NCBI GenBank assembly: GCA_002071335.1
Contig: MWEZ01000008.1
Location: 1 to 33,073, forward strand
Source of the DNA: Verrucomicrobia bacterium ADurb.Bin018
Lineage (GTDB): Bacteria; Verrucomicrobiota; Kiritimatiellia; CAIQIC01; Lenti-01
Reading direction: 5' to 3'
DNA: 33,073 bases
Part shown: positions 19,052 through 21,877 of the stretch, in pieces
Position numbering within the stretch: position 1 is the stretch's first letter
Layout: each line of letters opens with the position of its first letter
Made by a program: the position numbers and the translations under genes
The notes under the pieces: generated by a model
The model's input: the letters and a program-made list of their open reading frames with translations, nothing else
What the model was told of the DNA's origin: nothing
The model's database searches: none

Positions 19052-20470
19052 TTATTCCGCCGGCAGCTCGGGGTGCGGCTGGCGGATCATGTCAATGTGT
19101 TTCCATTTGCCGCGCAAGAAGCGCAGCCACAGGCCACCGGCCAGCAGAAAGACATACACCGACATCCAGAGCCAGGTGGCCAGCAGCCCGGCGTGGCACC
19201 ACAACACCAGCACCAGCTCGCCGGGAATCCACACCCCCCACGTCACAACGGCGGAATACAGCAGCACAAACCGGGTATCGCCCGCGCCCTTGAGTGAGCC
19301 GGCCACCACGAGGTTGATGGCGTCCAGCATTCCCCACAGCGCCATCAGCACCAACAACCAGCGGCCGAGGCCGATCACCTCATCCATGTGCAGCACATCC
19401 GGGCCTTCGCCGGTGAACAGCGCAAAATACATCCGCGGCAGCAGCAGGAAGGTCAGCGCGATGGCGCCCATGTAGAACCACGACAGCTTCAATGCCGTCC
19501 ACCCCGCCCGTGCCGCGGTGGCGGGGTTGCGCGCGCCCTGGTGCTGCCCCACCACAATCGTGGCCGCCATCCCCATGCCCAGCAGCGGCATGAACGCCAC
19601 ATTATTGATGCTGAACGCGATATTGCTGGCGGCCATTTCCACCGGCGGCAGGCGACCCAGCAATACCACAAAAAACGCAAATGCGCCCACATCCTGCACC
19701 GTATTGATGGCCGCCGGAACGCCGAAGCGCAGCAGCGGGCCCATGCGCTGCCAATCCAACCGCCGTCCACGCCATGTGCCATATTCGCGCCGGAACCTTT
19801 CCTGATAATACAGCACCAGCAGCATCGCCATGCCGAGCGCCGACGCGATCACTGTGGCGATGGCGCCCCCCGCGATGCCCCACTCCGGAAAACCCCAGTG
19901 GCCAAAAATCATCGCGTAATCCAGCCCGATGTTGGCGAGGTTGGCCAACAGGCTGGCGAGCATCGGCGTGCGGGTGTCGCCCCGCCCCGAAAAGAAACCC
20001 GCCAGCGCGTTCGTAATGGCATGAATTCCGCCGCCAAGCATCAAAATACCCAAGTAGGTTTGCTCCGCCGCCAGCACATCCGCCGGGTGCCCCGCCACGG
20101 ACAGCAGCCAATCGCCAAACGGAATCAGCGCGATACACAGCGGCCAGGTCAACAGCCCCAGCCAAATGCCTTGCGCCGTGGCGCGGCCGCATTCCTCGCG
20201 GCGGCCCGCGCCATGATATTGCGCCACAAACGTGCCCGCGTAGCCGGCCAGCGCCTGGAAAAAAGCCGTGAGCGTGAACGCCAAAATGCCGCCCGGCAAC
20301 GCGGCGCGCAGTGTGACCGAACTGTAGCGCGCCAAAAAGATGCGGTCGCAAAACTGCATCAGGGTGAACGACGCCATCGAGATGATGATCGGCGCCGCGA
20401 CGCGCCACACCTCGCGGTAGCCGCCGGGATATGGCTGGCCGGGCTTCCAGTTGGACGGACGCGAAAAGAT
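19052..20470 (-). CDS. MATE-family multidrug/Na+ (or H+) antiporter, probable ATC start
   Basis: A protein of about 472 aa with twelve membrane helices and MATE motifs (APIIISMASFTLMQFCDRIFLA; GGGIHAITNALAGFFSGRGDT; INTVQDVGAFAFF). The first standard start codon in frame is a GTG at 20408-20410, which would begin inside the conserved pre-helix segment and has no ribosome-binding site. Upstream, the frame reads RPSNWKPGQPYPGGYREV and is closed by the der stop codon in the same frame. The only well-placed start is ATC at 20468-20470, 7 bases after GGAG. ATC is a rare initiator, so either it is used or an ATG was mutated or misread. The exporter precedes a two-component system on the same strand. 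Confidence 0.85.
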   Translation of the reverse strand: MFSRPSNWKPGQPYPGGYREVWRVAAPIIISMASFTLMQFCDRIFLARYSSVTLRAALPGGILAFTLTAFFQALAGYAGTFVAQYHGAGRREECGRATAQGIWLGLLTWPLCIALIPFGDWLLSVAGHPADVLAAEQTYLGILMLGGGIHAITNALAGFFSGRGDTRTPMLASLLANLANIGLDYAMIFGHWGFPEWGIAGGAIATVIASALGMAMLLVLYYQERFRREYGTWRGRRLDWQRMGPLLRFGVPAAINTVQDVGAFAFFVVLLGRLPPVEMAASNIAFSINNVAFMPLLGMGMAATIVVGQHQGARNPATAARAGWTALKLSWFYMGAIALTFLLLPRMYFALFTGEGPDVLHMDEVIGLGRWLLVLMALWGMLDAINLVVAGSLKGAGDTRFVLLYSAVVTWGVWIPGELVLVLWCHAGLLATWLWMSVYVFLLAGGLWLRFLRGKWKHIDMIRQPHPELPAE

Positions 20471-20477
20471 GGCGGCT

Positions 20478-20481
20478 CTCC
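20478..20481 (-). promoter_or_regulatory. Ribosome-binding site GGAG that points to an ATC start
   Basis: GGAG lies just downstream of the der stop and 7 bases before the ATC at 20468-20470. No ATG, GTG or TTG follows it in any sensible spacing in the MATE frame. Confidence 0.5.
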
Positions 20482-20500
20482 AAGGGGCGCGCGGCCCGGC

Positions 20501-21877
20501 TCAGGTAGGTTCCTCGGGCGCGCCGTGGCTGGAGCGGTAGCGCAGGACCAGCGGCACGCCGGCCAAATCGAACGCCGCGCGCAGGCGTGCGGTCAAATAG
20601 GCTTGGTGCGTGGGGGTGTTCAGCGTGGGATCGTTGACAAACAACGTGACGCGCGGCGGGTTCAGCCCGGTTTGCGTGGCGTAATAAAACTTCAGTTGCC
20701 GGCCGCGGGTGAAGGGCGGTTGCGAGCGCATGAACGCGTCGCGTAGCACGCGATTCAACACGCCCGTGGGCATTTTGGTGGACAGCCGCGCGGCCACCGT
20801 GGCAATGACCTCAAAACTCCGGCGAATGTGGTAGCCGCTGGCCGCCGACACAAACAAAATGGGAATGTCATCCAGAAAAAACAGATCGGCGCGCATCCGT
20901 GCCGCGTAGTCCTCGGCCTTGACGCCGGAGCCCGTGGCCAAGTCCCACTTGTTCACCAGCACCACGCAGGCGCGGTGATGCTCGCGGATCATCGCCGCGA
21001 TTTTCTTTTCCTGCGCGCCGGGCCCCTCGGCGGCATCCAGCATCAACACCACAATGTCGGCCTCGGCAATGCATTGTTCCGTGCGGAAGAGGCTGAACTT
21101 TTCGACCGATTGATGCACCCGCCCCCGGCGGCGCATGCCGGCGGTGTCCACCAGCGTGTAGTGCTGCTCGCCGGTTGCGGTGCGCAGCGTGAACGGCACG
21201 TCAATCGTGTCGCGCGTGGTGCCGGGAATGTCGGACACAATCACCCGTTGCTGGCCGGTCAGTTTGTTGATGTAGGATGATTTGCCGACATTCGGCCGCC
21301 CCACCACCGCCACCTTCAGGCGCGGGGGCTCGGCTTCGCCACCGACCGGCGGCAGGTGCGGCAGGACCTCTTCCAGCAGCGCCTCGATGCCGCGATTGTG
21401 CGCGGCGGAAATCGCCACCACCGGGAATCCCAGCCGCGCGAAATCGTCGGTGTGGTCATCCCATTCCGGCAAGTCCGCCTTGTTGGCGGCCAACACCACC
21501 GGCCGCCCGGCCTGCCGGAGCAGGCGGGCCACTTCCACATCCAACGGCTGGATGCCCGCGGTGATGTCCACCACCAGAATCGCCGCGGCGGAATCGGCCA
21601 GCGCGGCCATGACTTGCTCCGCCGTGGCGCGTTGGATGTCGTCGCCCGTCTTGGCGCGATCCATCAAGGCCAGCCCGCCGGTATCCACCACCTGAAAGGT
21701 CTGGCCCAGCCACGTCGCCCGCGCCAGCAGGCGGTCGCGGGTCACGCCTTCTTCGGAATGCACAATGGCCAGCCGCCGCCGCACGAGGCGGTTGAACAGC
21801 GCCGACTTGCCCACGTTGGGCCGGCCCACAATGGCGACCATCCGGGCGGGCGAGTTGGTTGGAGTCGGTGTGGTCAT
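20501..21877 (-). CDS. der: Ribosome-biogenesis GTPase Der (EngA)
   Basis: A 458-aa double GTPase. The first G domain has GRPNVGKSALFNRL, DTGG (G3) and NKAD (G4). The second has GRPNVGKSSYINKL, DIPGTTRD, DTAG and NKWD. The C-terminal KH-like domain (PTGVLNRVLRDAFMRSQPPF; KFYYATQTGLNPP) binds the 50S subunit during its assembly. I chose the ATG at 21877 (MTTPTPTNSPARMVAIVGRP); the frame runs 23 codons further upstream into poor sequence, and M13 (MVAIVG) is an alternative. It sits about 100 bases after the nucleoside kinase gene on the same strand. Essential in most bacteria. Confidence 0.96.
   Translation of the reverse strand: MTTPTPTNSPARMVAIVGRPNVGKSALFNRLVRRRLAIVHSEEGVTRDRLLARATWLGQTFQVVDTGGLALMDRAKTGDDIQRATAEQVMAALADSAAAILVVDITAGIQPLDVEVARLLRQAGRPVVLAANKADLPEWDDHTDDFARLGFPVVAISAAHNRGIEALLEEVLPHLPPVGGEAEPPRLKVAVVGRPNVGKSSYINKLTGQQRVIVSDIPGTTRDTIDVPFTLRTATGEQHYTLVDTAGMRRRGRVHQSVEKFSLFRTEQCIAEADIVVLMLDAAEGPGAQEKKIAAMIREHHRACVVLVNKWDLATGSGVKAEDYAARMRADLFFLDDIPILFVSAASGYHIRRSFEVIATVAARLSTKMPTGVLNRVLRDAFMRSQPPFTRGRQLKFYYATQTGLNPPRVTLFVNDPTLNTPTHQAYLTARLRAAFDLAGVPLVLRYRSSHGAPEEPT

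What the first reader, a model, noticed from the sequence alone, without database searches (positions are those of the whole stretch)
20408..20503. MATE gene appears to require an ATC start codon
The der stop codon closes the same frame at 20501-20503, and the only standard start after it (GTG at 20410) would drop a pre-helix segment (PGGYREV) that I recall as conserved in this MATE group, and has no ribosome-binding site. ATC at 20468-20470 has GGAG at ideal spacing.
Basis: partly seen in the sequence, partly recalled or inferred. Interest (0 to 1): 0.5.

Follow-up and report, generated by a model that had tools for sequence, protein, structure and literature searches.

The report
Transporter gene with AUC/AUU start codon
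A bacterial efflux-type transporter gene appears to begin at the rare start codon AUC, and three related species have AUU at the same place, so it is probably a real, inherited weak start of a kind already known from a few other genes.

Summary
The window's MATE frame is closed by der's TGA (20503-20501), and the only standard start before the first membrane helix is GTG 20410. ATC 20470-20468 has GGAG seven bases upstream. Of 15 family genomes with this gene, the likeliest start is ATG in six, GTG in five, ATC in the window and ATT in three. The ATTs stand at exactly the ATC codon, each with its own Shine-Dalgarno (SD). A base-calling error is therefore unlikely, and a conserved AUC/AUU start is the best reading. 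The segment a GTG start would drop is conserved. Of 45 loci compared, window included, 43 have a standard start at least 11 codons before a common anchor; the GTG is at four. Caveats: two ATT relatives also have a standard codon nearby, with no or poor SD; codon-level constraint over the whole dropped segment is not significant in the four species alone; many genes here lack an SD; nothing was tested at the bench. Starts of this kind, limited by IF3, are known (infC, sigR, ccpN, Borrelia pncA), so this is a new member of a known kind. In the same family 9 of 17 infC genes appear to start at AUA or AUU.

The parts
20501..21877 (-). der (GTPase EngA) coding sequence (ATG start chosen by me); its TGA 20503-20501 closes the MATE frame upstream
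   Evidence: translation and ORF list; der directly upstream of MATE in 14 of the 15 family loci examined, not found in the 1.5 kb held upstream of L018, nor in five loci outside the family
20478..20481 (-). GGAG, Shine-Dalgarno of the MATE gene, 7 nt before ATC
   Evidence: sequence; duplex energy -6.4 kcal/mol; anti-SD CCTCCTTT in this genome's 16S gene
20468..20470 (-). ATC, proposed start codon of the MATE gene
   Evidence: same codon is ATT in L002, L003, L004, ATG in L008, L011, L012 (L005, L006 with a one-codon gap) and GTG in L010
20411..20467 (-). N-terminal segment FSRPSNWKPGQPYPGGYRE that a GTG start would drop; PGGYRE (20411-20428) is conserved
   Evidence: 13-species codon comparison, third-position excess in PGGYRE, permutation P 0.0006
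20408..20410 (-). GTG, the only standard start in the frame before TM1 (rival start)
   Evidence: ORF list; weak GGCGG pairing -5.0 kcal/mol at spacing 9
19052..20470 (-). MATE family efflux transporter, 472 aa from ATC
   Evidence: Pfam MatE 4.2e-42; NCBIfam TIGR00797 7.5e-72, above its cut-off

Best explanation
The MATE gene downstream of der is translated from AUC (AUU in three related species), placed by an SD in the short gap after der. Initiator tRNA pairs with the first two bases and mismatches at the third, so the ribosome starts there inefficiently; initiation factor IF3, which rejects such codons, sets how much. The likely effect is to keep a membrane transporter at a low level that rises when IF3 is short relative to ribosomes, as for infC. 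Shown here: the sequence, AUC/AUU at one aligned codon in four species, the SDs, ATG or GTG at that codon in other relatives, and the lack of a proper alternative in the window. Inferred: that translation starts there, that it is weak, and that IF3 controls it.
For: ATC/ATT/ATT/ATT at codon -24 in G000, G016, G007, G015, 14 codons before the conserved PGG (RGG in G016), no indel among the four. SD energies -6.4, -7.2, -8.6, -8.6 kcal/mol at these codons; energies of -6.4 or better occur at 33% of 150 first ATGs and 6% of 992 internal standard codons of this genome's sample. ATT-CTC in G007 faces ATG-CTC in G012. Of 45 distinct loci of at least 45% identity, window included, 43 have a standard start 11 to 40 codons upstream of the anchor; the two that do not are the window and G007, both AUC/AUU species. 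The tree puts the four in a clade of seven (84/92), where one gain and two returns to ATG need three changes and separate gains four (my count). IF3 is found in 17 of 17 family genomes, and 9 of 17 infC genes appear to start at ATA or ATT with SD -6.6 to -8.3.
Against: In two ATT relatives a standard codon lies close by (TTG three codons downstream in G016; GTG two codons upstream in G015), and G007 has a GTG 17 codons upstream inside der; these have no or weak SD. SDs are not universal here: only 57 of 150 first ATGs, 9 of 54 GTGs and 6 of 59 TTGs follow an SD core, so a weak SD at the GTG is not decisive. Third-position excess across the whole dropped segment in the four species is not significant (P 0.14; -17..-5 P 0.038), and pN/pS there (0.58) is higher than in the body (0.24). 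One solved MATE chain (6fhz) aligns query residue 21 to its residue 4, so a protein starting at the GTG could fold. The four do not form an exclusive clade (p-AU 1.6e-16). The window genome's own infC has ATG. No expression data.
Confidence: 0.85

Rival explanations
1. Translation really starts at GTG 20410; the conserved upstream segment is a remnant or belongs only to the ATG and GTG species.
For: GTG or ATG stands at this codon in all four AUC/AUU species, with weak GGCGG pairing; many starts in this genome lack an SD; one solved MATE starts about there.
Against: The codon is GTC or GTT in L008, L011 and L018, so it is a Val/Met position rather than a kept start; the pairing comes from Gly codons also present in species with clear upstream starts; PGGYRE shows protein-level constraint across 13 species (P 0.0006).
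Confidence: 0.09
2. A base-calling or assembly error in this MAG hides an ATG.
For: The genome is a draft of 429 contigs and raw reads are not available here.
Confidence: 0.03
3. Read-through of the der TGA makes a Der-MATE fusion, so ATC is an internal Ile codon.
For: The two genes share a frame in the window and in G016.
Against: In G007 and G015 der ends in another frame, and the residues between the genes look unrelated.
Confidence: 0.01
4. The start is AUC/AUU, but only as drift tolerated because ribosomes finishing der re-initiate nearby; no IF3 regulation is selected. (A variant of the best explanation, so its odds overlap with it.)
For: All four AUC/AUU cases lie 13-30 nt after the der stop, while of four relatives with der 152-942 nt away none has AUC/AUU as its likeliest start, G010 being ambiguous.
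Against: Four relatives with der within 43 nt use ATG, so closeness is not sufficient. In E. coli excess IF3 lowers re-initiation where no SD is present (PMC2268962, passages seen); here there is an SD, so that case does not apply directly.
Confidence: 0.35

Closest known systems
infC (IF3) AUU/AUC/AUA start and autoregulation
   Same: Non-AUG AUH start; IF3-sensitive (PMC5472188 passages); AUA with extended SD in S. aureus (PMC13009471 section 10)
   Different: infC encodes the factor that discriminates; MATE is a transporter with no known feedback
S. aureus cvfC1 (AUU) and ccpN (AUA)
   Same: Conserved non-canonical start with strong SD across species; reporters give about 10% of AUG, up to 30% for ccpN in rich medium (PMC13009471 section 10)
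   Different: Unrelated genes; shown by ribosome profiling, here only by sequence
Borrelia burgdorferi pncA (bbe22), AUU start
   Same: Database annotation from a standard start is 24 residues too short (PMC13398362 abstract)
   Different: Shown by genetics, biochemistry and a crystal structure
E. coli pcnB (AUU) and Streptomyces sigR (GUC)
   Same: Translation limited by a non-standard start; sigR repressed by IF3
   Different: Different proteins; sigR uses GUC; pcnB seen only as a reference title

Membership tests
Genes with AUH start limited by IF3 | No usable standard start; AUH with SD at 5-9 nt | tested here: met
   window: (in the three ATT relatives a standard codon exists but with no or weak SD)
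Genes with AUH start limited by IF3 | AUH kept at the same codon in relatives | tested here: met
   4 of 15 family orthologues, 4 of 7 in the clade
Genes with AUH start limited by IF3 | Initiation shown at the codon by peptide or ribosome profiling | not testable with these tools
   no expression data
Genes with AUH start limited by IF3 | Output rises when IF3 is lowered and falls when it is raised | not testable with these tools
   needs a reporter
MATE transporters | Match to MatE models above curated cut-offs | tested here: met
   PF01554 144 bits, cut-off 24.9; TIGR00797 242.4 bits, cut-off 147.4
NorM-type equivalog MATE | NCBIfam equivalog cut-off | tested here: not met
   NF001214 141.7 bits, cut-off 449

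The most novel reading that the evidence does not exclude
In this Kiritimatiellae family IF3 level is read by a small set of genes with selected AUH starts, at least infC (AUA/AUU) and the der-linked MATE transporter (AUC/AUU), tying efflux to the state of the ribosome pool. The phylum's initiator tRNA, which seems to have A:U instead of G:C at the first of its three conserved anticodon-stem pairs, may make such starts more tolerable.
Probability: 0.2. Interest if true: 0.62.

Novelty: new member of a known kind. Interest (0 to 1): 0.42.

Why it matters
Few genes are known to start at AUU or AUC, and gene finders usually do not allow it, so such genes are misannotated (as for Borrelia pncA, and sigR and infC). 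A conserved case in a little-studied lineage, found by comparing relatives, shows how more could be found, and adds a membrane transporter to the list.

Tried and rejected
A genome-wide excess of AUH starts was sought in 427 kb of this genome (263 called genes, which I think misses many): none (9 of 108 AUH codons SD-preceded against 314 of 3390 others). So this looks like a rare case, not a habit of the genome.

A conserved hairpin around the start was sought. In 90-nt folds three of four placed the start in or near a loop with the SD in a stem, but 71-nt folds are not clearly more stable than shuffles (z -0.91, 0.64, 2.53, 1.04 for the four; 1.09 for G001), so it was dropped.

An initiator-like tRNA reading AUC/AUU was sought in the 30 tRNA loci returned (of 38 matches): none; the two Met tRNAs have CAT and the Ile tRNA has GAT. 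Matches without a locus were not read, apart from one Tyr tRNA that lay in another's locus.

Papers: searches (at least three of MATE transporter, AUU, start codon, efflux; 20 of 52 listed; Kiritimatiell-, start codon; 10 of 10 listed), seen only as listings, show no title reporting this start; the library holds only open-licence papers.

In one search a control is labelled 57 nt; it was 39 nt (13 codons). My infC motif scripts found nothing or two loci; one search replaced them. In some searches one locus (L034) was placed one codon late.

Full report
What is there. The window is contig 8 of a 429-contig draft genome; its closest named relatives are Kiritimatiellae, Verrucomicrobia, Lentisphaerae and similar MAGs. 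On the minus strand der ends at TGA 20503-20501 and a MATE gene follows in the same frame. The protein matches Pfam MatE (4.2e-42) and NCBIfam TIGR00797 (7.5e-72) above their cut-offs. Between the der stop and the GTG at 20410 there is no ATG, GTG or TTG. ATC at 20470 has GGAG seven bases upstream.

Relatives. Of 17 genomes held for the family, 16 match the protein and 15 carry this orthologue (56% identity or more; G003 has only distant MATEs and G014 none). Their likeliest starts, my reading, are: ATC in the window; ATT in G016, G007 and G015; ATG in G013, G012, G010, G001, G008 and G005; GTG in G004, G011, G009, G006 and G002. G010 is ambiguous: its ATG lacks an SD at normal spacing, and an ATT three codons upstream has -6.4 kcal/mol at spacing 6. 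In the four AUC/AUU species the codon is exactly 14 codons before PGG (RGG in G016), with no indel. The ATGs of G012 and G013 align to the ATT of G007 once a one-codon gap before PGG is allowed.

Are other starts possible? In the window none but the GTG. In G016 there is a TTG three codons after ATT, without SD at 4-9 nt. In G007 a GTG 17 codons upstream, inside der, has none. In G015 a GTG two codons upstream has -1.2 kcal/mol and an ATG inside der none. The ATT codons have -7.2, -8.6 and -8.6 kcal/mol. Among 45 distinct loci of at least 45% identity, window included (one more, L058, was left out because its alignment starts later), 43 have a standard start 11 to 40 codons before the anchor; the exceptions are the window and G007. 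The GTG is four codons before it. Against this, SDs are not universal in this genome (57 of 150 first ATGs), and one solved MATE begins near the GTG position.

Is the dropped segment translated? In 13 of the 15 family orthologues (L009 and L014 were left out) the PGGYRE codons differ mostly at third positions (32, 44, 199 differences at positions 1, 2, 3; permutation P 0.0006). In the four AUC/AUU species alone the signal is weak: 36, 31, 45 for codons -23..-5 (P 0.14) and 15, 18, 31 for -17..-5 (P 0.038), against 7, 3, 26 for the first 19 body codons (P 0.005) and no periodicity in the 39 nt upstream (46, 41, 44; P 0.53). pN/pS is 0.58, 0.41 and, in the body, 0.24. So the part near PGGYRE looks coding; the first few codons vary freely. 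The permutation does not correct for relatedness of the species.

History. A der+MATE protein tree places the four within a seven-species clade (84/92) with G001, G012 and G013 (84/93 from MATE alone); they are not a clade by themselves (p-AU 1.6e-16). The simplest history by my count is one origin of AUC/AUU and two returns to ATG (three changes against four separate gains), a small margin. All four lie 13-30 nt after der's stop. Of the other ten of the 14 family loci with der found, four have der within 43 nt and ATG, two have GTG right at the der stop, and four have der 152-942 nt away.

Mechanism. The anti-SD CCTCCTTT is intact in this genome and in G007; no 16S gene was found in the four other genomes searched. 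IF3 is found in all 17. In 9 of 17 infC genes the best SD points to ATA (8) or ATT (1); in four of those nine no standard codon lies between the upstream stop and the conserved motif; the other 8, including the window's genome, have ATG. Published work shows that IF3 represses such codons and that they lower expression to about 10-30% of AUG (PMC5472188 passages; PMC13009471 section 10; PMC10158994 abstract). I infer the same for MATE. Whether this is selected regulation or tolerated drift beside der is open.

Comparison. Conserved AUU/AUA starts in staphylococci (PMC13009471) and the Borrelia pncA AUU start with a truncated annotation (PMC13398362 abstract) are the closest precedents found. 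This is a new member of that known kind, in a new gene and lineage.

Side result. The initiator tRNA of this genome has A:U at 29:41, the first of the 'three GC pairs' (numbering mine). A pattern that allowed A:U or G:C there matched 13 of 17 family, 48 of 57 class and 107 of 115 phylum genomes (overlapping samples). All hits listed read AGG/CCT. In one search three second hits (G036, G058, G068) read otherwise, one of them GGG/CCC; each of these genomes also has an AGG/CCT hit. Only the window genome's tRNA was read in full. A review calls the three GC pairs highly conserved in all domains (PMC7949028 passages). The feature is too widespread to explain this gene alone.

Noticed in passing
L189 (G000:C27:12441-12514) and hits: Initiator tRNA with A29:U41 in place of the first of the three conserved G:C pairs of the anticodon stem; a pattern allowing either pair found this form in 107 of 115 sampled genomes of the phylum. 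Only one of these tRNAs was read in full.
   Followed up: partly
L121, L123, L124, L125, L126, L128, L129, L130, L137 (infC): infC appears to start at ATA (8) or ATT (1) in 9 of 17 family genomes; the other 8, including the window's genome, have ATG, six of them with the SD very close. In the window's genome the ATG stands two codons before an ATA.
   Followed up: partly
window 19602-20483: A 293-aa open frame starting at TTG 20483 overlaps the MATE start in another frame; it looks like a shadow frame of the G+C-rich gene.
   Followed up: no
L006 and L007, upstream of MATE: G012 and G010, where der is farther away, share TTTGGAGAAAGCCG with the GGAG about 15-17 nt before ATG, a long SD spacing; in G010 an ATT three codons before the ATG is better placed and may be a further AUU start.
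   Followed up: partly
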